47,055 nucleotides of DNA, from the NCBI GenBank assembly GCA_015523465.1, contig WAKF01000089.1, positions 1 to 47,055 of the forward strand. The letters run 5' to 3'. This document shows, piece after piece, positions 14,233 through 45,249 of this stretch; the first letter of the stretch is position 1, and each line of letters begins with the position of its first letter. A model generated the notes under the pieces. It saw only the letters and a program-made list of their open reading frames with translations, had not been told where the DNA came from and searched no databases. This stretch comes from Aeropyrum sp. (lineage in GTDB: Archaea; Thermoproteota; Thermoprotei_A; Sulfolobales; Acidilobaceae). A program made the translations under genes and the position numbers.

Positions 14233-14871
14233 CTAGTCGTACCCGTAGGTCCTACCCTCTCCTACTCTCAACGGCCCTTTATATGCTATCCATGCAAAGA
14301 CAAGCGCTAATAACAGGGAGACCGTGAACCCTATGAAATAGTTTATCGAGAGGACTACTCTCAACGAATCCGCCTCTATAACCCTAAGCACCGCTATCCT
14401 TATTACTAGAAATAACGTGATGAGCGCAAACGAGGCTATAGCCCCCTTCATGCCCCCTCCTAGCCCATAAGCTAGTAGCGGTAGCGACACTAGCATGATT
14501 AGGAAGTATACCCGCGCCAAGCTAATCATGACTTTTGGGTCATCAGGCAGCAGCCACGCCAGAAATGAGATGTGATAGTTAGTTGCTAAACCATGTAGGT
14601 TTAGAAGGCCGCTTATTAGCACCCCTATAACGAACAAGACAGCCGCCACTTTAAACCTAGTATCCAGAACTGCAAGGGCTATAAGCCCGCCCAACACAGC
14701 TAAAGGCGTAACTATCAACAAGCGAAAGAGACTATAAACACCTAAAACAGTCCTGGGATGGTGAACACCTAAGAGCACTAAGGCCGCTAGAACGAGGCTA
14801 GCCATAGAGCCCGCTATGAAAGATAATGCCAACAATGCTGCGGATGCTCGATGCGACAAGCTCGGCCCCAA
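14233..14871 (-). CDS. Multi-pass membrane protein, unknown
   Basis: This protein of up to 212 residues is made of about six hydrophobic segments: roughly residues 10-35, 45-70, 74-95, 118-135, 142-165 and 178-198. Charged loops are short and the C terminus is hydrophilic (GPLRVGEGRTYGYD). I recognise no family motif. The longest start is TTG 14871, but AT-rich promoter-like sequence sits right before it, so a start slightly downstream is possible. It lies between the peptide importer genes and DUF1464 on the same strand, within 20 to 61 bases of each, so it may be transcribed with them. No function can be assigned. Confidence 0.6.
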   Translation of the reverse strand: MGPSLSHRASAALLALSFIAGSMASLVLAALVLLGVHHPRTVLGVYSLFRLLIVTPLAVLGGLIALAVLDTRFKVAAVLFVIGVLISGLLNLHGLATNYHISFLAWLLPDDPKVMISLARVYFLIMLVSLPLLAYGLGGGMKGAIASFALITLFLVIRIAVLRVIEADSLRVVLSINYFIGFTVSLLLALVFAWIAYKGPLRVGEGRTYGYD

Positions 14872-29323: not shown

Positions 29324-30634
29324 CTAGGATCTACATGCTGGTAAAAGCTTTTCGATGGTGCTAGTTACAGCTCTAGCCTTATTCTCTACCTCCTCAGCAT
29401 GCTCCTCTAGCTCCACAAGCTTTGATTCGATCCTGCGCCGGCTGCATCCCGTAGCCCTCGCTTTGAACACCTTCTCCGGGCTCCACAGGCTGACTATGCC
29501 TTGTGATGCTATTTTAGAGTAGGCATTTCTGAATGGCATGCCCTCTTCTAGGCTTAGCCTTTCAGCCTCCTCAGCGCTATACGGTTTAGCCTCCTCCAGG
29601 ATCTTTAAGGACCTGCTCCTTCGGGGCTTTATGCTGGATGCTAGGGATACTAGTATCTCGGCTGCTTTCAGAGCAGCATCTAGGACCTCGCTATAAGCCC
29701 TGTTAGCTTCCTGGAGGTCTAGGTTGTATGAGTATCTCAACTTACCGGTTATGACGTGTGGAGTGATCGACTTAACTATGCATTCCGAGGCCGTAGCTCT
29801 CAGTATCTCCAGGGTGACAGGGTTCTCTTTGTGGGGCATGAAGCTACTCGTAGCTAAGTGGCTTGACGGCAGGCCTATCAGCCTTAGCTCGTGGAGCTGT
29901 ATGAGGTCCTCTGCTATCCTAGACATCTCAGTGCATGCTACGCCTAAGGCCGAAGAGGCTAGGGTTAAGAAGGCCCTGGAGGCTACAGCGTAGTAGGGGG
30001 AGGCGTAAACTCCCTTGAAGCCTAGGTGAGAGGCTATCTTCTCTTCGTTAATAGGGGCGAGGCTACCAGCCCCTGCCGCCGCTCCAAGGGGGCTTTTAGA
30101 GAGGGCGAGTCCCGCAGAATACAGTAGAGTCTCTGCTGCTTCTAGCAAGCTCTCTGAGTAGGCTAGCGTGATGCACGCCCAAGAAAGAACATACGCTACT
30201 TCACCGTGGGTAAAGCCCGGCATAGGGTCCCATGTCGCTGTTGAGAGGAAGGACCTACTGGCTTCTGCCAGCTTCAACGCTAGGTTGGATGCTGTGTATG
30301 CTATGTAGAGTCTGAGGGCCGCTGCCACATGGTCATTCCTGCTTCTTCCGAGGGGAAACCATGCCCCTTGTGGTGAGGCTTCAAGCATTGCCTCCTCTAT
30401 CGCCTCCCATAGGTCTTCGTAGCCCTCGTTGGGCGGATTGCATGATACCCTCTCTACGGCTTCCGTCAGAGTCTTCACATCAACGTCTGCGATGTAGCCT
30501 AGCCTGGCAAGCTCTCCTAAGTGGGCTTTAACTACTGCAGCTATGAAACGCGATATTCTGGCATCGTGGCTGAGGCTTGATGTGTACTTGTATACCTCGT
30601 CTCCGCCTAGCCCCTTGATCTCCCTATACCTCAC
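29324..30634 (-). CDS. argH: Argininosuccinate lyase
   Basis: This 436-residue enzyme of the fumarase/aspartase superfamily splits argininosuccinate to arginine and fumarate, the last step of arginine synthesis. The signature loop is TSSFMPHKENPVTLE (around 262-276), carrying the catalytic serine; most relatives have GSS rather than TSS. PLGRSRNDHVAAALRLY near 90-110 is the second conserved segment. FTHGEVAYVL stands where many enzymes have the HTHLQ motif, a noticeable divergence. The GTG at 30634 lies inside the end of argG, giving an 11-base overlap. Length is near the usual 450-470. Confidence 0.92.
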   Translation of the reverse strand: MRYREIKGLGGDEVYKYTSSLSHDARISRFIAAVVKAHLGELARLGYIADVDVKTLTEAVERVSCNPPNEGYEDLWEAIEEAMLEASPQGAWFPLGRSRNDHVAAALRLYIAYTASNLALKLAEASRSFLSTATWDPMPGFTHGEVAYVLSWACITLAYSESLLEAAETLLYSAGLALSKSPLGAAAGAGSLAPINEEKIASHLGFKGVYASPYYAVASRAFLTLASSALGVACTEMSRIAEDLIQLHELRLIGLPSSHLATSSFMPHKENPVTLEILRATASECIVKSITPHVITGKLRYSYNLDLQEANRAYSEVLDAALKAAEILVSLASSIKPRRSRSLKILEEAKPYSAEEAERLSLEEGMPFRNAYSKIASQGIVSLWSPEKVFKARATGCSRRRIESKLVELEEHAEEVENKARAVTSTIEKLLPACRS

Positions 30635-31835
30635 CGCCAGCTAGCCCCCGCGCCTTAGCCGCAGCTATGCTGTGCATCGTATAGATCTTGACGAACCCTT
30701 CAGCCTCCATTCCTTCAGGGTACCATCCCTTATTATAGTCTATGGCTTCATGGGAATAGCTAGTATACCACGCCTCTCTCCCCACGACTTGGAGAGAGCC
30801 CTTGTACACCTTCAGCTTTACCAAGCCAGCTACAAACCTGTTCATAGAGTCTATAGCCGCTTCTAAGTGGAGCCTTAGGGGCTCCACCCATAATCCATTA
30901 TAGACTAAGTCGCTCCACGCCTGGTCAAGCGTTCTCTTAAACCTATACTCTAGGGGTGTGTAAACCGTCTTCTCTAGGTCCCTATGAGCTTCTATGAGCG
31001 TTAGAGCGGCTGGAGCCTCGTAAACCTCCCTAGACTTTAACCCCACGACCCTATTCTCAATATGGTCTATCCTGCCGAAGCCGTGAGCCCCCACAGCCCT
31101 GTTAAGGTATGATATTATCTTTTCAGGCTGCATTCGCTCGCCGTTAACGGCGACAGGAACTCCCCCTCTAAACTCGATCTCCAAGTAGAGGGGGTCGTCT
31201 GGAGCCTTCCGGGGGTCTATAGTCCAAGCAAAGACCTCCTCTGGAGGCTCTTTGGAGGGGTCGTCTAACACTCCCCCTTCAATACTCCTTGTCCACAGGT
31301 TTTCATCTATACTATACTTATCGTGGCCCCCTTCTACCTTGAATCCCTTGCTCCTAAGCATCTCCAGAGACTTAGACCTTGTGAGTTTGAGGCTCCTTAC
31401 AGGCGCTAGAATCCCTATATCATCTCCAAGGTAGTATCTTAGCGTGGAGTCAAACCTAACCTGATCGTTACCTTTCCCCGTGCACCCATGAGCTACCGCG
31501 TCGGCCCCAACCTTCTTGGCGATCTCAGCCACCTTTAAGGCGATAAGTGGTCTAGCCAGCGCAGTGCCTAGAGGGTACTTGTCCTCATAGAGGGCGTTAG
31601 CCTTTACAGCCTTGAAGGCGTACTTGGAGGCAAATTCCTCCTTGGCGTTTATAGTGTAGTGCTCTGTCGCCCCCAGCTTGTAGGCTCTCTCCTCTACTCC
31701 CTCGAGGACGTCTTCTTGCCCCACATCAACCGTAACAGTCACTACTTCATATCCTTCCTCTTTTAGTAGTAAGAGGACTGCTGAGGTATCGAGGCCTCCA
31801 GAGTATGCAAGGACGACCCTACCCTTGCCCGCCAA
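30624..31835 (-). CDS. argG: Argininosuccinate synthase
   Basis: This 403-residue ATP-dependent enzyme joins citrulline and aspartate. The ATP-pyrophosphatase loop is LAYSGGLDTSAVLLLL, with SGGLDTS at 12-18. Further conserved segments are VAHGCTGKGNDQVRFD, GILAPVRSLKLTRSKSLEML and DENLWTRSIEGGVLDDPSKEPPEE. Length is standard. The start is TTG at 31835. A TATA box (31863-31869) places transcription start only a few bases upstream, so the message is nearly leaderless. It is followed by argH with an overlap, giving a two-gene arginine operon. The usual lysine/arginine LysW genes are not here. Confidence 0.97.
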   Translation of the reverse strand: MAGKGRVVLAYSGGLDTSAVLLLLKEEGYEVVTVTVDVGQEDVLEGVEERAYKLGATEHYTINAKEEFASKYAFKAVKANALYEDKYPLGTALARPLIALKVAEIAKKVGADAVAHGCTGKGNDQVRFDSTLRYYLGDDIGILAPVRSLKLTRSKSLEMLRSKGFKVEGGHDKYSIDENLWTRSIEGGVLDDPSKEPPEEVFAWTIDPRKAPDDPLYLEIEFRGGVPVAVNGERMQPEKIISYLNRAVGAHGFGRIDHIENRVVGLKSREVYEAPAALTLIEAHRDLEKTVYTPLEYRFKRTLDQAWSDLVYNGLWVEPLRLHLEAAIDSMNRFVAGLVKLKVYKGSLQVVGREAWYTSYSHEAIDYNKGWYPEGMEAEGFVKIYTMHSIAAAKARGLAGGEV

Positions 31836-31930: not shown

Positions 31931-34519
31931 CTATATGGTCCTTTCAGCCCTTGCCTCAGGGTCTATGCTCCTAGCAGCCTCTAAAGCCTTGCCAGTAACG
32001 GTCCTGTTGCCATCGGCTATAGTTAGTGATACACGTGATACAAGCCCCTTAAGCTCTAAGTCCTCGAGTATCTTTAAGGCCCATAGAGCCTCTCCGTCGA
32101 AGCTGACCATTAGCTTGCCTGAGGGGCTTTCGCTTCCCGCGTAACCCCAGGCTAGGACTCTCACCTTCACCCTACCCGGTATCACGCTTAAAGCTGCGAT
32201 AACAGCTTCGGGAGAGGCTTCTATAACTATACCTTTACCCTCGCCTTCCCGAGCCTTCTTAGCCTCTTCAAGTACCTCTTCCTCTCTACCTGGAAGGCAG
32301 AGTGCGAATTTCAACGCTTTAATGCCTCCAGGTGGAGGAGAACAGTAGGTCCTACCCTGAGATACTACTCCGACTACCCCCGATGCGAGGAGAGCCTTCA
32401 AAACATTCTCTAGACCTTGCTCTCCAGCTTCAATCATTGGCATTGAAGGGTTAGCTGTGAAGTATTCTAGTATCTTGCTGAAATGTACTGGCTCTCTCGA
32501 AGCTAGAGTCTTAACTGCCTCTTCAACAAGCCTTGGAGGCGGCTGCCTTAACAGTTTACCCCTCTCTGCTAGCTTATATCTAACTACAGCCCATAATCCG
32601 CCTTCTCCAGCGGGGCTTAAGGGTGCCGAGGCTAACTTTATCCCTCCATTACTTCTTTCCACGGGGTACCAGGCCTCGTAGTAGAGACTAGCTGAGTCCC
32701 TAGCTAAGATGATGCTAGCAGCCTCTTCTACTTCCCTCAGCTTAGACCTAGCTTCGCCTCCCACATTGGGGCTAGAGAGTAGTTCCCTAGAAGCTATGTA
32801 TAATGCTGCGGCCTCGAGGAGCCTCTCGTAAACTCTTTTTTCCGGTTTTAGAAGTATTATTGTGTTTACGTGCCTTCTCCAACCTCCACCCCTATAAGTC
32901 TCGAAGATAGACCGAGCATACCTATCAAACTCTAAGTCCTCCGAGTATGAGGGGTTAGCTAGGACTAGCTTTAACTCTGGTGTATCTGGCACTGCTTGAG
33001 GTTCCCGGGGCCATAGTACTACTTTTAGGGTAGGCGGAGCCTTGATTATTGCCTTCACCCGTTCGGCTACAAGTGATGCTGCTTCTCCTCTTCTAGTCGA
33101 TAAAATCTCTCGGGCCTTCCTCCGTGCTAGGAGGTATGCGTTGACTTCACTCTTAACATGATACATCTTATCCTTCCCTGAAGACTCAACGTGAACGTAC
33201 ATGGCTGTGTCCTCTATTATCTTTAGTGCATCCTCCACGTCGTTTCTAGTATGACCCCTGAGGGGAGTTATAGTTGAGAGTAGGACCTCTCTCGTGGAGA
33301 TCCCGCTTCCCGTTATGCTTGCTAGCGTTATTGCTGAGTAGACTTTTAGAGCTAGTTCTGATCCATGCCTTAGTATAGAACTTGTATCTGCTGCTACCGC
33401 AGTTCTAAGCCTAGGCGATATCGAGAGAAGTCTATCAGCAACTCTAGGATTGCTCACGTCAATGTCTGACGGCAATATGTAGTCTAGCCCTTCCCCGACA
33501 TTAGAGGCTACCTCCGCCATGAGTGAGAGAGTCCACGAAAGACTAGATTCTGCAGTGATCCTCTCAAGTATGTCAGCAAGCTGTGGGTGAAGAGGATATA
33601 GTGACTCCATCCTCTTAGGATAATCCTGTGGAGGAGATATTGAGGACCTGCGATACTCCTCGAGGTACATTGATGCCGCTGTTGAGGCCGCCTCAGGCCT
33701 TATATCCTTAAAGAGCGCTCTTCTCACTATCTCAGGCACTTCTGAAGGCGAAGTTGGAGCTAGGGGTCTAGCCCAGCGTAGAGCCGGCATCACGCTTGAT
33801 TCAGGTCCTACGGTCATCATACCTGTAGACACGGTAAACACTGCTATAGAGCGCGTCCTAGAGGTAAGCGCCTCTCCCAGGCTCTCCATGAACGCATATA
33901 CCCCCTCTAGCTCCCTTACAGCGTCTTGTGAGCCTGCAGACCTCAGTCTGGAAACGTAGATGTCAACTCCGTCGAAGAGCAGTACTGCAGAACCTCCTTC
34001 CTCTTCAGCAATGTCAAGGGCCTCGCCTAATGACTCTCCCCCTGGAGGACCTCCGGAGGACCTTACCTTACCGTCTGTTAAAGAGGATAATATATAGTCC
34101 CAGGCACTCCTCCACCCCATCGACCTTAAGTCTTCTGGTCCCACGCTTACCGCATCGAGTACGACTATCCTCGCAGCGCCTTCAGGCCTTGGGGTGTTTG
34201 AGTATGCAAGGGCTGCTTCAACTCTCGAGTCTTCAAGGCTAGCTTTAGGGTTTGAGGCTAGATGATAGAGTGCTATGAGAGTGTGGGTTTTACCCCAACC
34301 GCTAGGCGAGTATAAGAGCAGGCCTGGAGGACCTCCCTTGCCCTCCATTCTAGAGGCGAGCCAGCTTAGCGCTTGGGACAAACCTCTCGTCATATACGTC
34401 CTCTCGAAGAATAGCCTAGTGTCTACATAGGACCTATGCCCTAACCCCCGTACTACAGGCCAAAGGGAAGGCGAGAAGCTACTGTCGAGATCACGCCTAA
34501 GGCTCCATCCCTTAACCAA
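31931..34519 (-). CDS. DUF499-like P-loop ATPase, partner of the DUF1156-like protein
   Basis: This 862-residue protein resembles the archaeal DUF499/COG1483 ATPases. The N-terminal AAA-like core has Walker A YSPSGWGKTHTLIALYHLA with Lys77, the GKTHT-ALYH pattern typical of the family. SAVLLFDGVDIYVSRL is the Walker B strand, with Asp183 followed by Gly184 where the catalytic Glu is expected. An SIAVFTVSTG strand follows. The middle (about 280-420) is helical with winged-helix-like pieces, and the C-terminal 350 residues are alpha/beta with no motif I know. DUF499 proteins are usually encoded next to DUF1156 methylase-like genes in archaeal defence loci, as here. TTG start after GGGGGG. Its role is inferred from context only. 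Confidence 0.7.
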   Translation of the reverse strand: MVKGWSLRRDLDSSFSPSLWPVVRGLGHRSYVDTRLFFERTYMTRGLSQALSWLASRMEGKGGPPGLLLYSPSGWGKTHTLIALYHLASNPKASLEDSRVEAALAYSNTPRPEGAARIVVLDAVSVGPEDLRSMGWRSAWDYILSSLTDGKVRSSGGPPGGESLGEALDIAEEEGGSAVLLFDGVDIYVSRLRSAGSQDAVRELEGVYAFMESLGEALTSRTRSIAVFTVSTGMMTVGPESSVMPALRWARPLAPTSPSEVPEIVRRALFKDIRPEAASTAASMYLEEYRRSSISPPQDYPKRMESLYPLHPQLADILERITAESSLSWTLSLMAEVASNVGEGLDYILPSDIDVSNPRVADRLLSISPRLRTAVAADTSSILRHGSELALKVYSAITLASITGSGISTREVLLSTITPLRGHTRNDVEDALKIIEDTAMYVHVESSGKDKMYHVKSEVNAYLLARRKAREILSTRRGEAASLVAERVKAIIKAPPTLKVVLWPREPQAVPDTPELKLVLANPSYSEDLEFDRYARSIFETYRGGGWRRHVNTIILLKPEKRVYERLLEAAALYIASRELLSSPNVGGEARSKLREVEEAASIILARDSASLYYEAWYPVERSNGGIKLASAPLSPAGEGGLWAVVRYKLAERGKLLRQPPPRLVEEAVKTLASREPVHFSKILEYFTANPSMPMIEAGEQGLENVLKALLASGVVGVVSQGRTYCSPPPGGIKALKFALCLPGREEEVLEEAKKAREGEGKGIVIEASPEAVIAALSVIPGRVKVRVLAWGYAGSESPSGKLMVSFDGEALWALKILEDLELKGLVSRVSLTIADGNRTVTGKALEAARSIDPEARAERTI

Positions 34520-34547
34520 AGCCTAACCCCCCATTCCGGGATTAGCC

Positions 34548-36653
34548 TTAAGTGGCCCCTTGAAGGGGTAGGGGTGCACTGCAAGCGGGTTGGCTTGGAA
34601 GGGCGAAGCCCATCCTTTCTAGGGCCTTGATTATAATACACTCTGTGTGGCCTTCTCCGCCCTTTAACCTTCTAAGGAGGGACTCTTTGGGAGGCGTAGC
34701 CTCTTTAATATTAACAGGCCTTACCAGGCCTCCCTTCTCTCTAAAGCAGCATCTAAGCCCCGACTCCGGCTCCACACCCAACAGCTTCGATAGAAGGGAA
34801 TATGCTTCCCTAGATACAGGCCCCTCCGATATTAATGATAAATAGAGCAGTGTGAGGCCATCGAGGGGTGGTAGCCTAATTGCCAGCGTCTCTGATAGAG
34901 TAGATGCTATGACTTCCCCGATGATCCTAGAAGCTATATGACCTGTTGAGAGTCTAGCGCCAGTATACGAGGTTATGGGCCAGCATTTACTCGCTACTAC
35001 TCCAATAGCTTCAATAACAGAAGATACCGCTGCCGACGCCGCTCCGAGCCCCTGTTTGACCTTCAACGCAGCCCTTCTCGAAGCTTCTTCGGACAGCTTA
35101 GACCACACGCTAGGGTTCTCTAGGCATTCTCTAGGCTCAACCTTTACAGTTTCTAGCACCATGTTCCATAGTCTATATTGAACGCCCACGATCCTAGGGG
35201 ACCATCCCCTTTCTAGCAGCTCGTCAACTATGTACAATAGCCTGCGAGGTCCTCCTTCAACCGCGACAACTAGTCTCTCAACGCCTCTAATCCTTACTAG
35301 CGAAGCTATGCTGGTCAAAGCCTCTAGGCTAGGCCGGTATCCTATAGGGGGTGTGCCCGCGCTAAGCGCTCTTAAAGCCCACGAGCTATACGGAACAGCG
35401 CCGTAGAGAGGAACGTCAACCCTTATGTAGGCTACAGCTAGGCTAGCTTGTTTCGAAGTAACCGAGTCTCCATTAGATAAGGTTGTCCTTCTCGCAAGCA
35501 TTACAGCGTTCCTCGCCACACTCTCTAGAATTAAGGGTAGATGTGCTTCCCCGTGAATCCTAGGAAGGCCGGTAAGGCCCCTTACTCCCATCTTAAGCCT
35601 TCCGGGAGCCCCCCTCCTTTGATCCCAGGGAGTGAAAGCTGTTGATGCCGCTAGAGCCTCTAGGTAGGCAAGCACTATGTATGTGGCTGCAGCTTCGCCT
35701 GCGTTACTGCCGTAGCTTGCTTCAACCTCCTTTCTGGCTCTCCTTAAGGCTTTAATAGCTTCTGCGTGGGCTAGGAGCTGCCTTGCAGTGAACATCTTGT
35801 AAGCCACGTCAACGCCATAGTATTTGAGGGGGGAGTAGGGTAGGGGGTCTGATGGTATTAAGCCCCTCGAAGCTAGGTAAGGCCACTCCTTAGCCAGGGC
35901 TCTGAGTAAACTCTCACTGCTATCTTCAAGGCCTCCAGCGTCTTCAAAGCCCCTAGAAGTCTTGACGGCTGCAAGCTTTAGAGGATGTAACCCCCACTTG
36001 CCTTCGCTCCACGAGTCCAACACTCTCTTATAAGCCTTCCTAGCGTCATCGACGGTCATCACAGAGCCGTCAGGGCATCTTACTACTCTACCTCTTACAG
36101 TAGCTAGCTCCCTTCTAGCCTTTTCAAGCGACGACACCCTTACGACTCGAAACACTTCACCCTCATAGTATAGCGCTAGCCTGCGTTCTTCCCAGACGAT
36201 GGGATCCCCTATTACAGGTGCTTCAGAGCCTCCGGGGCACTTAACGACCCGCACCCACACGTACCCTTCAATGTCGTCGCCCGGGTAAAGCTTCTTCAAA
36301 GGAGTCCTTAATGCCTCTAAGAATATTGATGCTGCCTCCTCAACTATACGCTCCAGCTTAGGACCTAGCAGTCTAGGATACGATAACCTAGCCTTCAACT
36401 CCAGCTCTCTCACGGGCTCTAAGGCCGTTGCTTCGACTTCAACGCCTGAAGAGGCTAGGACCTCGCTTACCCCCCAAACTCCATATTCGAATACATAAGC
36501 TTTATCCTTCTTAGCTGCCTTAGGAGGAGTACAAGCTCGACCACCTAAAGAATCTCTAAACCTACCCCAGGCCCCTGTTACTAAGGAGGCTACGGCCGCC
36601 GCCAAGCACTTATCACAGTAGAAGCCTTCTAGAAGCGTTTGGACGGGCTGCAA
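34548..36653 (-). CDS. DUF1156/COG1743-like protein, methyltransferase motifs degenerate
   Basis: This 701-residue protein lines up with COG1743 adenine-specific DNA methylase-like proteins: GVEVEATALEPVRELELKA and LSYPRLLG, then YVWVRVVKCPGG, DSWSEGKWGLHP, VDVAYKMFTARQLLAHAEAI, and the TYIVLAYLEALAASTAF region. In the family the SAM site is DPFAGGG and the catalytic site DPPYYD. Here the equivalents are FEYGVWG (55-61) and VDVPLYG (Asp413 onward), so both look lost. The usual N-terminal WWARRP segment is also missing; a single CxxC (Cys13/16) stands there. The start is an unsupported TTG, so the N terminus is unsure. It lies 28 bases before the DUF499-like gene, a probable two-gene operon. 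DNA binding without methylation is a reasonable guess. Confidence 0.65.
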   Translation of the reverse strand: MQPVQTLLEGFYCDKCLAAAVASLVTGAWGRFRDSLGGRACTPPKAAKKDKAYVFEYGVWGVSEVLASSGVEVEATALEPVRELELKARLSYPRLLGPKLERIVEEAASIFLEALRTPLKKLYPGDDIEGYVWVRVVKCPGGSEAPVIGDPIVWEERRLALYYEGEVFRVVRVSSLEKARRELATVRGRVVRCPDGSVMTVDDARKAYKRVLDSWSEGKWGLHPLKLAAVKTSRGFEDAGGLEDSSESLLRALAKEWPYLASRGLIPSDPLPYSPLKYYGVDVAYKMFTARQLLAHAEAIKALRRARKEVEASYGSNAGEAAATYIVLAYLEALAASTAFTPWDQRRGAPGRLKMGVRGLTGLPRIHGEAHLPLILESVARNAVMLARRTTLSNGDSVTSKQASLAVAYIRVDVPLYGAVPYSSWALRALSAGTPPIGYRPSLEALTSIASLVRIRGVERLVVAVEGGPRRLLYIVDELLERGWSPRIVGVQYRLWNMVLETVKVEPRECLENPSVWSKLSEEASRRAALKVKQGLGAASAAVSSVIEAIGVVASKCWPITSYTGARLSTGHIASRIIGEVIASTLSETLAIRLPPLDGLTLLYLSLISEGPVSREAYSLLSKLLGVEPESGLRCCFREKGGLVRPVNIKEATPPKESLLRRLKGGEGHTECIIIKALERMGFALPSQPACSAPLPLQGAT

Positions 36654-41334: not shown

Positions 41335-44300
41335 CTAGATTCTAGTTACGTAAAGCCTGGCGTAAGGATATTCTTTCAACGCTTTTAAAGCCCTGGATGC
41401 TATTCTACTACGCTCGCACACAGCCACAATATAACCCAGGTCCATTAACTTAGCCCACTCGCCCTTCTCAGCTAGCCTTACAATCCTCAAAAGACTCCCA
41501 CTCCTAGCTTTAAACGGCTTACCCCACATGCTCCTATAAGCCTCTGCAACCTCCTTGAGGAGCCTTTCACTCGAGACCGCTAGATAAACGCCCTCAGGCC
41601 CTAGCAGATCCTCTAGCACTCCTAGGAGCTCTGCTAGCTCCCTACATCCCCTGACACTAGAGCATTCAATCGAGCCTCCCGGAGGTAAGGTGCCTTTTAG
41701 AGACTTCATGGGTGTTGAGAAGTACTTCCTTATAGCGTCCTTAAAGGCTCTGTCAACCTCCTTTACACCCTTTGAAGCTAGGGATAGTGAAACTTCTATG
41801 GCGTCCCTTAGCGCTTCAAGCCTGCGTATTTCTATGCTCCTTCTGGTGTGTAGCGCGGAGAAAAGCTCTCTCCCTAGTATGTCAACTTCTATAGGCTCGT
41901 ATCCTGGAGCCCACTCAACTATGACATAGTGGCTCCCGGGCTCTACCTGCCTCCACTCGCCACTACAGGCTCCAGCCGAGAAGACCTCTTCACCGTCGGC
42001 TACTAGCCTTAATCCTCCGTTACACGATTCAAACCTAAACTTTAGGGGCCTTAGACCTTCAACCCTAGGCAGCCCTGGGGTGGAGAATGCTAGGTCTCCA
42101 GGTAGCCTGACAGCCCATCCAGCCTCCTCTTCTAGGGGGATGTCGCTTCTAGCCTCATACAACTGGGCCTTACCCACCAGCCAGTAATCTAAGACCCCCG
42201 AGGACCTAAGGAAGTCTAGGCTCCTCAGGGCTATCCTACCCCTGGGAAGGGCCTTGAGCGGTACCAGTATCCTCCGAATCCCCAGGCTTTTAGACGTGGC
42301 AGCTAGTATGTTATTGACTGCCACTACCTCGCTGGGCTTAGGAAGCTCGGATAGAGTCTCTACCGCTTTAACCTTAAAATCTTCCGGGTTATAGAGTATG
42401 GCTGCTATCGATCTCAACCCATCTCTCCCAGCCCTCCCAGCTTCTTGTACATAGTCCTCCAGGCTATCGCTAGGACTTACATGTATTATCCACCTTATGT
42501 TAGGTATGTCTACTCCCATGCCGAAAGCCTTAGTAGCCACTATAACCCTTCTCCCGCCACCCTCAATAACCTCTCTTTCAACTTTCCTCCTCATAGACTC
42601 TGCCATTTGCCCGTGATAAACATAGACCTTCTCAACCCCAGAGGATTTCAAGCTACCTGCAATTTCCTCGGCGTTAAGCCTAGGCCTTCTCCTACTCTTA
42701 ACGTAGCCCGTAAATACTACGCCCACCCACCCGTCCTCCGAGACCCCATCAGCCCATTTAGAGAGATCCGAGACCAGCCGAGCTACGGTCTCGACCCTAG
42801 CCTTATCATCCCTAGGAGCAGGGACTATGTGAAACTCTATGTTATCCCTTACAGGATCGCCTCTGACAATAACATCCCCGCTCGAAGCAGCCCTCCACGC
42901 CTCATCCCACCCTACATCCCACCCCACTTCAACTCTATTCTGTGAGCCCAGCGCCAACATTACAGAGTCTGCTACGTCCGGCGTTGCAGTGGCTGTAAGG
43001 GCTAGTATTGGGGGCCACAGCCTGCTACTCCTTATTTCTAGTAGTCTCTTAGCCATGTAGAGGTAACTCGGCCTGAAAGTTACGCCCCACCTAGCCAGGC
43101 TATGAGCCTCGTCTAGCACTGCTAGAGAAGGAGGAGTAGTTTCCAGCAGGGACTCTAAGTCGTTATCGCCGAACCTCTCGGGGGCTACGTACACTAGGTC
43201 TAGGAGCCCCCTACGAGCAGCGTCTACTACAAGCCTCTTAAGCCTAGCCGGGACGCTGGAGTCTATGTAAGCCGCCGCCAGCCCTCTCTTAGCTGCAGAC
43301 CGAGCCTGATCCCGCATAAGAGCCTTTAAGGGACTCACAACGAGGGTATAAACTCCCCATCCCATAAGGGAACCAGCCCTACCTGCAGCCTGGAATATAG
43401 CTGATTTCCCGTAGCCTGTTGGCAGTATAGCCATAGTAGTTAGAGGCCTACCTTCTAGGTAGCTCCTCGACACTGCCGCTAGAGCAGTTTCTTGGCCCTT
43501 CCTAGGCCTAGCACCCCTCATTATACTCGTGAACGCCAATAGGACCTCGTCCTTCACTAGCTCGTTACCAATCCTCCCTCGAGGCCTTTTCCATCCTTTA
43601 GGCTCGGAGAGAGAGTATGATACCGCTCTCCCCCCTAGTTTCGCTACAAGCTCCTTGACTTTGTCGAGCCAATAGTCCCTCAAGTAATATTCCTCTTCCT
43701 CTCCCCTAAGCGCAGCTACTATCCTAGAAGCCTTTCGACCCCCCCGTACTAGCACTTCTGGGAGCACTAGCACGATGCTAGTAGCAGGTCCTAGGACCTC
43801 TGGCGTTGAGATTACCATCTCCCACCATGCTACAGCAATGCCACCCGAAGCCAGCCATTCCTCCGCGCTTTCAGGACGTTCTAGTAACCTCGCTCTGACA
43901 GCCTTCGAGATCTCTATGGCTAGGGCCCTAGAGGGAGCTACTATGAGAGGCCTTTCCCCAGAAGCAAGACTAAGCGCCTTACCCGCTAAGTCCTCGGGCC
44001 CTGGAGACTCGGGAGTCAATGCTACTATCCTAGGCTCCCCACCCCCACTTTCAACCCCTAGCCTGGAGGCGTATGAGGATGGGAGCCAGGTCCTAACCCT
44101 AACCCTTCCCGGCCTTGAGGGCGGCGGAGGCAGAGGAAGGTTAAACCCCCTTCTCAGAGCCCCTTCAACCCAAGGCCCGTGACCCTCAGGCTCCAAGCAG
44201 TCCTCGAGAGGCCTCAAACAGTCAACCTCAGCCACCCCATCACTAGCTCCTCCATTAACCAGCCCTGTATCCCAAGGCTCCACTTGAGGCGCTATGGCAG

Positions 44301-45249
44301 TACCCTTCTCTATGGACGAAGAGACTATGTTTTCTAGGAGACTCCAGAATCGCCCTCCAAGACTCTGAGGGTCTCTGTATAGTATCCTGGCTATGTCTCC
44401 CTTCCTCAAAGCTATGGAGGCTGCTGCAGCCCAGGCTGCATAAGCAAGCCCCTCGCCTCTGGGAGGTCCTGGATCGAGACGGTACGGCTTTGTTACGCCA
44501 TAGACTAGTCTAGGCTTATCTGTGAGAACGAGCCCACCCTCTAGTGGTTCTGGATGTGAAGCCTTTATTGCGCTTGCCCTCGAGACGCTCTGAGGCATCC
44601 TTCTCCAGTCAACCCCCAGCCTTTCAAGTATCCAGACGCTCCTCTCAGCCACGCCTTTAACAGCCTCTACAGGCCTTCTATAGGATACTCCAAGGTGGTA
44701 CGCTGTGGAATACAGCATGCCGCCTCCCTCGGGGATGGCTATAGAGGCTAGCATCCTAACGTCAACGCTCCAAGGGTATGTGGGCCTGCATCCCCAGTAG
44801 GCTAGGACCTCTGCGCCCAGCGCTAGAGCCGCCGAGGATATGGCGTCCCCGCCTACAATCCTCCATGAAGCTGAGGCTGGAAGCGATGAAGTGGAGAAGA
44901 GGATGTCCCCCGCTAGGACCTCCACAGACTCGCCACTACAATAGGCATAGACAACGCCTCCCTTCGGGAGAGGTTTTCCAAGGAGCCTTGAAGCCTCCCA
45001 AGCCCACTTTCCCTCGCCGGCAAGCACTGTGAAAGCCAAAGCCTCTTCCAGGTACTCGAGGGAAACCTTGCAACCCATTCTGGCAGCCTCGATAATTAGC
45101 TCGTAAACACCCAGAACCCTAGCCTCCCTTACAACCCTCTCAGCGACCCTGCATCCCTCAATCCTCAAAGCCTCCCTTAGAGATATTGGATCGCCTAATT
45201 CACGCCCAGCTAGAAGCTCCCTAGCTCTCCCCCAAATCCTACCCAGCAA
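41335..45249 (-). CDS. Large RecQ-like superfamily 2 helicase with an unknown N-terminal half
   Basis: This 1304-residue protein has a complete RecQ-type core at about 580-1000. KGQETALAAVSRSYLEGRP is the start of the core, PTGYGKS (610-616) is motif I, DEAH (713-716) motif II, LALTATATPDV motif III, KAFGMGVDIPNIRWIIHVSPS motif V and QEAGRAGRDG (935-944) motif VI. No RecQ-Ct zinc ligands or HRDC are recognisable in the last 300 residues. The first 560 residues are not part of RecQ. Around 430-540 the segments PLIVAPSRALAIEISKAV and VAWWEMVISTPEVLGPATSIVLVLPEVL faintly recall the second motor domain of XPD/DinG helicases, which is inference only. TTG start after AGGGGCG. Confidence 0.85.
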   Translation of the reverse strand: MLGRIWGRARELLAGRELGDPISLREALRIEGCRVAERVVREARVLGVYELIIEAARMGCKVSLEYLEEALAFTVLAGEGKWAWEASRLLGKPLPKGGVVYAYCSGESVEVLAGDILFSTSSLPASASWRIVGGDAISSAALALGAEVLAYWGCRPTYPWSVDVRMLASIAIPEGGGMLYSTAYHLGVSYRRPVEAVKGVAERSVWILERLGVDWRRMPQSVSRASAIKASHPEPLEGGLVLTDKPRLVYGVTKPYRLDPGPPRGEGLAYAAWAAAASIALRKGDIARILYRDPQSLGGRFWSLLENIVSSSIEKGTAIAPQVEPWDTGLVNGGASDGVAEVDCLRPLEDCLEPEGHGPWVEGALRRGFNLPLPPPPSRPGRVRVRTWLPSSYASRLGVESGGGEPRIVALTPESPGPEDLAGKALSLASGERPLIVAPSRALAIEISKAVRARLLERPESAEEWLASGGIAVAWWEMVISTPEVLGPATSIVLVLPEVLVRGGRKASRIVAALRGEEEEYYLRDYWLDKVKELVAKLGGRAVSYSLSEPKGWKRPRGRIGNELVKDEVLLAFTSIMRGARPRKGQETALAAVSRSYLEGRPLTTMAILPTGYGKSAIFQAAGRAGSLMGWGVYTLVVSPLKALMRDQARSAAKRGLAAAYIDSSVPARLKRLVVDAARRGLLDLVYVAPERFGDNDLESLLETTPPSLAVLDEAHSLARWGVTFRPSYLYMAKRLLEIRSSRLWPPILALTATATPDVADSVMLALGSQNRVEVGWDVGWDEAWRAASSGDVIVRGDPVRDNIEFHIVPAPRDDKARVETVARLVSDLSKWADGVSEDGWVGVVFTGYVKSRRRPRLNAEEIAGSLKSSGVEKVYVYHGQMAESMRRKVEREVIEGGGRRVIVATKAFGMGVDIPNIRWIIHVSPSDSLEDYVQEAGRAGRDGLRSIAAILYNPEDFKVKAVETLSELPKPSEVVAVNNILAATSKSLGIRRILVPLKALPRGRIALRSLDFLRSSGVLDYWLVGKAQLYEARSDIPLEEEAGWAVRLPGDLAFSTPGLPRVEGLRPLKFRFESCNGGLRLVADGEEVFSAGACSGEWRQVEPGSHYVIVEWAPGYEPIEVDILGRELFSALHTRRSIEIRRLEALRDAIEVSLSLASKGVKEVDRAFKDAIRKYFSTPMKSLKGTLPPGGSIECSSVRGCRELAELLGVLEDLLGPEGVYLAVSSERLLKEVAEAYRSMWGKPFKARSGSLLRIVRLAEKGEWAKLMDLGYIVAVCERSRIASRALKALKEYPYARLYVTRI
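43786..43799. repeat. 14-base perfect palindrome AGGTCCTAGGACCT
   Basis: Two copies of the window-wide heptamer AGGWCCT (AGGTCCT and AGGACCT) abut exactly here, making a perfect 14-base palindrome inside the helicase gene. It encodes Glu-Val-Leu-Gly-Pro-Ala in the minus frame, so it costs nothing in the protein. Confidence 0.8.

What the first reader, a model, noticed from the sequence alone, without database searches (positions are those of the whole stretch)
34548..36653. Methylase-like DUF1156 protein with both methyltransferase motifs lost
The protein follows the COG1743 layout closely, yet the SAM-binding DPFAGGG is replaced by FEYGVWG and the catalytic DPPYYD by DVPLYG, and the WWARRP segment at the N terminus is missing. 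DUF1156-DUF499 pairs are known from archaeal defence islands. A paired, catalytically dead version on a chromosome beside housekeeping genes suggests either a DNA-reading complex without modification or domestication of a defence system for a host role.
Basis: partly seen in the sequence, partly recalled or inferred. Interest (0 to 1): 0.65.

Follow-up and report, generated by a model that had tools for sequence, protein, structure and literature searches.

The report
Dead methylase–ATPase pair, still maintained
An archaeon of the Aeropyrum lineage keeps, next to ordinary metabolic genes, an old copy of the two DNA-reading proteins of an anti-virus system in which the methyl-transfer machinery has gone but the DNA-reading part is still preserved by selection, which suggests a defence module turned into a reader or switch that does not mark DNA.

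Summary
Minus-strand ORF 34548-36653 (701 aa) is homologous to COG1743/HmaB-type DNA methyltransferases. It lacks motif I (DPFAGGG→FEYGVWG), motif IV (DPPYYD→DVPLYG) and the N-terminal DUF1156/WWARRP segment; no copy of them exists elsewhere in the protein. Its operon partner (31931-34519) is a DUF499/HmaC-like ATPase with its P-loop kept but the Walker B Glu replaced (DE→DG). The loss is not a one-off. A sister genome (G003) carries both genes with the same losses, and a third (G001) carries a deeper, similarly dead pair; together they form one old clade, not a recent copy of the intact 5-gene system elsewhere in this genome. In G003 an inversion cut the operon between the two genes, clipping the methylase tail and leaving a scar, yet both ORFs stayed open. 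Codon positions show purifying selection. The conservation profile is inverted: residues invariant in active enzymes survive in the target-recognition insert (40/95) but not in the catalytic lobes (15/137). Most likely this is a non-methylating DNA reader/ATP switch derived from a DUF499-centred BREX-related (Hma) system. Whether it serves immunity, as an accessory or decoy, or the host is open. AlphaFold was uninformative.

The parts
34548..36653 (-). degenerate COG1743/HmaB-like methylase (701 aa), motifs I and IV and the DUF1156 segment lost
36471..36491 (-). FEYGVWG (aa 55-61), in the place of SAM-binding DPFAGGG
   Evidence: alignment; coordinates computed from aa number
35616..36299 (-). 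target-recognition (TRD) insert, aa 119-346: the best conserved part, with the two CP-G cysteine motifs (C139, C193)
   Evidence: TRD position by analogy with PMC12839542
35400..35417 (-). DVPLYG (aa 413-418), in the place of catalytic DPPYYD
34659..35093 (-). C-terminal segment aa 521-665, equivalent to the HTH triad of active enzymes
   Evidence: alignment; HTH assignment from PMC12839542, not tested here
31931..34519 (-). DUF499/HmaC-like ORC/STAND-type ATPase (862 aa), partner gene 28 bp downstream
   Evidence: PF04465 9.9e-22; PADLOC HmaC 4.8e-35
34286..34309 (-). Walker A SPSGWGKT (aa 71-78), kept; GGGK changed to GWGK in all three degenerate copies
33962..33976 (-). Walker B FDGVD (aa 182-186): the catalytic Glu of D-E is Gly; DG-x-D resembles the NACHT form
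   Evidence: NACHT comparison from own knowledge
34520..34547 (-). 28-bp gene junction near which the inversion in sister genome G003 broke the operon

Best explanation
The two genes are an old, methylation-dead offshoot of an HmaB/HmaC (DUF499-centred BREX-related, 'BR') pair. The methylase half has become a DNA reader: it keeps the target-recognition insert and the C-terminal DNA-binding region but cannot transfer methyl groups. With no nuclease or helicase of its own, the complex most likely works in trans beside the intact BR-type system, as an accessory sensor or second specificity unit that does not mark DNA. Shown: homology, motif losses, conservation in sister genomes, purifying selection, preferential retention of the recognition insert. 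Inferred: DNA binding, complex formation in G003 after the split, ATP-switch behaviour, and the immune role.
For: Same losses in G003 (44% identity MTase, 53% DUF499) and in a deeper pair in G001; concatenated tree 100/98 for the three degenerate pairs, with shared GWGK and no Walker B Glu. Purifying selection: identity at codon positions 1/2/3 is .57/.62/.32 and .62/.72/.35, synonymous sites saturated; neutral decay would give 18-33 in-frame stops. Inverted profile: active-invariant residues kept in TRD 40/95 against 15/137 in catalytic lobes, Fisher p=1e-7. Both ORFs survived separation by inversion. All three genomes also hold an intact HmaC-type locus.
Against: No experiment; the structure model is unusable (pLDDT 41.6). 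The genes sit among housekeeping genes, not in a defence island. G001 lacks the 5-gene subtype in its 76% complete assembly, so a fixed partner system is not shown. Both genes evolve 2-3 times faster (in dN) than the active pair.
Confidence: 0.5

Rival explanations
1. Domesticated host factor: the dead pair has left immunity and acts in chromosome biology (gene regulation, nucleoid or replication-associated ATP-dependent DNA binding).
For: Both known chromosomal settings are housekeeping (argH-argG / GGPP synthase; subtilase / Cbf5 / cytidylate kinase); DUF499 is ORC/Cdc6-related (PMC7641849, PMC12839542); the module was kept through an inversion.
Against: Absent from A. pernix-like, A. camini-like and G005 genomes of the same genus, so not essential; different loci in G001 and G000/G003; fast evolution.
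Confidence: 0.22
2. Decoy: the dead MTase/ATPase bind viral inhibitors (DNA mimics or anti-BR proteins) that would otherwise block the intact system.
For: Keeps the DNA-binding face (TRD) while catalytic lobes decay; fast evolution; intact BR-type loci in the same genomes; decoy roles are proposed for inactive domains in these systems (PMC12839542).
Against: Does not explain retention of a P-loop ATPase partner; no inhibitor known in these archaea; TRD only about 35% identical to that of the intact enzyme.
Confidence: 0.13
3. Relic in slow decay: a dead defence operon with no present function.
For: Motif losses, N-terminal truncation, faster dN than the active pair, clipped C terminus in G003.
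Against: Two ORFs of 701 and 862 codons stay open in two lineages with saturated synonymous divergence; codon-position signal; inverted, domain-specific conservation.
Confidence: 0.08
4. Enzyme with a changed chemistry: the remodelled E-x-G-x-x-G Rossmann start still binds SAM or another nucleotide and modifies something other than adenine N6.
For: Both orthologues keep E-[YW]-G-x-x-G and an acidic residue at the end of strand 2.
Against: The catalytic lobe around motif IV is not conserved between the orthologues (DVPLYG against GGWRIS; 38% identity).
Confidence: 0.07

Closest known systems
DUF499-centred BREX-related (BR) systems, types 1-3 (PMC12839542)
   Same: Adjacent COG1743-type MTase with TRD insert and C-terminal HTH region, and DUF499 AAA+ ATPase
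   Different: No helicase or nuclease gene; DUF1156 segment, motif I, motif IV and Walker B Glu absent
Hma system (HmaA helicase, HmaB methylase, HmaC ATPase; PADLOC, PMC8565338)
   Same: DUF499 partner matches HmaC (4.8e-35); the intact paralogue of the methylase matches HmaB (4.9e-50)
   Different: No HmaA; the methylase itself matches no HmaB model and lacks the catalytic motifs
COG1743-DUF499-SWI2/SNF2 helicase-nuclease operon of archaea (PMC7641849)
   Same: Two of the three gene families, same order and archaeal setting
   Different: No SWI2/SNF2 gene, no EVE gene; dead methylase
Inactive MTase + TRD inside DndH (PMC10853773)
   Same: Precedent for a dead methylase fold with a TRD kept in a defence protein (TRD + iMTase + REase triad)
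   Different: There a domain fused to a nuclease and a HerA/FtsK ATPase; here a stand-alone two-gene unit from another family

Membership tests
COG1743 / HmaB N6-adenine methyltransferase | homology over the TRD and the MTase lobes | tested here: met
   E=2e-37 to the intact paralogue; 64-605 of 701 aa align with G041
COG1743 / HmaB N6-adenine methyltransferase | motif I DPFAGGG and motif IV DPPY | tested here: not met
   absent in this protein, its orthologue and the G001 relative
COG1743 / HmaB N6-adenine methyltransferase | N-terminal DUF1156 (PF06634) with WWARRP | tested here: not met
DUF499 / HmaC ATPase (partner gene) | PF04465 / HmaC profile match | tested here: met
   9.9e-22, 4.8e-35
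DUF499 / HmaC ATPase (partner gene) | Walker A | tested here: met
   SPSGWGKTH
DUF499 / HmaC ATPase (partner gene) | Walker B D-E | tested here: not met
   DG (window, G003), DD (G001); DE in 12 of 12 active rows
BR / Hma defence system | helicase and/or nuclease gene in the locus | tested here: not met
   immediate neighbours are argG, argH, proS, GGPP synthase, DUF2118, CYTH
BR / Hma defence system | protection against viruses | not testable with these tools
   needs a genetic assay
Pseudogene | broken frame or neutral codon pattern | tested here: not met

The most novel reading that the evidence does not exclude
A BREX-related MTase/ATPase pair has turned, as a unit, into a stable DNA-reading ATP switch: methylation lost, Walker B changed to a NACHT-like DG-x-D form, target recognition kept. 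It forms a distinct two-gene class in the Aeropyrum lineage that works without modification and without an effector of its own.
Probability: 0.4. Interest if true: 0.72.

Novelty: new variant of a known kind. Interest (0 to 1): 0.55.

Why it matters
BREX and BR systems are thought to read DNA with the methylase TRD and to restrict what is unmarked. A naturally separated, selectively maintained pair with the chemistry removed would show that the MTase-ATPase complex has a function that does not need methylation, and gives a natural separation-of-function variant for testing how these complexes recognise DNA and whether dead copies serve as accessory sensors, decoys or host regulators.

Tried and rejected
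Recent local duplication of the intact C17 pair: rejected (AU p=1.7e-7, with a long-branch caveat). Pseudogene: rejected. Viral origin or viral carriage: scans of viral contigs with degenerate and active alignments found nothing. Wider spread: no further degenerate copy recognised in 229 genomes of the class (DUF499 profile) or 214 of the order (methylase profile); in a 398-genome phylum draw the full-length hit G276 has intact motifs. Structure: AlphaFold with the only two admissible sequences gave pLDDT 41.6, so no fold search was made. PDB sequence search: no useful hit. I did not hand genome-search loci to the folding tool, since its rule does not list them. A weak match at G000:C20 was not accepted as kin: that stretch is covered by ordinary 483- and 319-aa ORFs.

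Full report
THE OBJECT. The ORF of the finding lies on the minus strand, 34548-36653, 701 codons. 28 bp downstream, in the same direction, is 31931-34519 (862 aa), a DUF499 protein (PF04465 9.9e-22; PADLOC HmaC 4.8e-35). Around them are argG and argH, proS, GGPP synthase (divergent), DUF2118 and CYTH genes: no helicase or nuclease is adjacent. The genome is an archaeal assembly of 1.8 Mb. A same-genus genome with the orthologue is the MAG 'Acidilobaceae archaeon S141_metabat2_scaf2bin.228' (JALUAM01). Two other genomes of the genus have the sizes of A. pernix K1 and A. camini SY1 (identification from memory), so the genus is probably Aeropyrum.

THE LOSS IS REAL. The protein is homologous to intact COG1743/HmaB-type methylases (E=2e-37 to the paralogue on contig C17 of the same genome), yet FEYGVWG stands for DPFAGGG and DVPLYG for DPPYYD, and the DUF1156/WWARRP start is missing. 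No alternative motif exists in it. In the sister genome G003 the same protein has VEWGLHG and GLGGWRIS at these places, so motif IV is under no common constraint. The first region keeps E-[YW]-G-x-x-G and an acidic residue after strand 2, so a Rossmann-like start may persist.

THE PARTNER IS CHANGED TOO. Walker A is kept (SPSGWGKTH) but the Walker B glutamate, present in all 12 active relatives aligned, is Gly in the window and G003 and Asp in G001. The DG-x-D form resembles Walker B of NACHT ATPases (own knowledge), so ATP binding with slow hydrolysis is my inference.

IT IS OLD AND SHARED. G003 (44% and 53% identity) and G001 (645 + 935 aa, vestigial motifs) carry homologous pairs. In a tree of concatenated MTase+DUF499 the three form a clade (100/98), sister to the intact subtype; grouping the window/G003 copies with the intact Aeropyrum pair is rejected (AU p=1.7e-7). 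Long branches call for caution, but the shared GWGK Walker A supports the grouping. No further copy was recognised in 229 genomes of the class (DUF499 profile) or 214 of the order (methylase profile).

AN INVERSION GIVES A NATURAL TEST. In G003 the DUF499 gene lies beside argG-argH and the methylase beside GGPP synthase on two contigs. Gene order is explained by one inversion of the segment corresponding to window ~14.2-34.5 kb, with a breakpoint at the boundary of the two genes. Upstream of G003's DUF499 the DNA still encodes SAPLPLKGA, matching the window methylase's C-terminal SAPLPLQGA (0 of 2000 shuffles score as high): the window order is therefore taken as ancestral, and G003's methylase lost about its last 35 residues. 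Both genes nonetheless remain open.

SELECTION. Between window and G003, identity at codon positions 1/2/3 is .57/.62/.32 (methylase) and .62/.72/.35 (DUF499); dN is .59 and .42 against .18 and .22 for the intact pair, with saturated synonymous sites. Simulated neutral decay gives 18-33 stops per gene. Selection is purifying but weaker or redirected.

WHAT IS KEPT. Of residues invariant in seven active enzymes, both degenerate proteins keep 40/95 in the TRD insert, 15/137 in the catalytic lobes (Fisher p=1e-7), and 9/40 in the C-terminal part; in the active pair the catalytic lobes are the most conserved parts. TRD insert and HTH triad are as described for BR methylases in PMC12839542. This is the main reason to call it a reader.

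CONTEXT IN THE SAME GENOME. Contig C17 (and G003 C64) holds an intact DUF499 + methylase pair, divergent from a PD-(D/E)XK protein, an AAA_11/AAA_12 (SF1-type) helicase and a D12-like methylase. All three genomes with a degenerate pair also carry an intact HmaC-type gene; of the three others in the genus one does. With six genomes this is only a hint.

VERDICT. A methylation-dead, selectively maintained BR/Hma-derived MTase-ATPase pair. Homology, losses, age, selection and domain-specific constraint are shown. DNA binding, switching and the immune or host role are inferred. Not a member of Hma/BR as defined (no effector, no active motifs), though derived from it.

Noticed in passing
L030:7104-17768 (G000:C17); also L032, L038, L037, L151: Intact DUF499+COG1743 pair, divergent from a PD-(D/E)XK protein and an AAA_11/AAA_12 SF1-type helicase, in most of them with a D12-like methylase; no Swi2/Snf2 helicase, unlike the published BR types 1-3. 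Possibly an undescribed BR subtype of Desulfurococcales (L152 and L153 show ORFs of matching size).
   Followed up: partly
L040:4709-15841 (G053): The same nuclease/SF1-helicase gene pair also lies near a DUF499/MTase pair of another subclade, which suggests the effector module is exchanged between BR lineages.
   Followed up: no
window 41335-45249 (-): 1304-aa RecQ/DpdF-like helicase with a long N-terminal region without a Pfam match.
   Followed up: no
window 14233-14871 (-): 212-aa hydrophobic, probably membrane protein of unknown family at the other breakpoint of the G003 inversion; no homologue on the G003 contigs read.
   Followed up: no
window 29324-31835 (-): Of the genus genomes included in that search, argG was found only in the two with the window-type pair; its neighbour argH diverges fast (56% identity against 79% for argG).
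   Followed up: no
L036:4365-9179 (G001:C17): Third degenerate pair, beside a subtilase gene and tRNA-modification/nucleotide kinase genes, with vestigial EPPVRGGS for motif I.
   Followed up: yes
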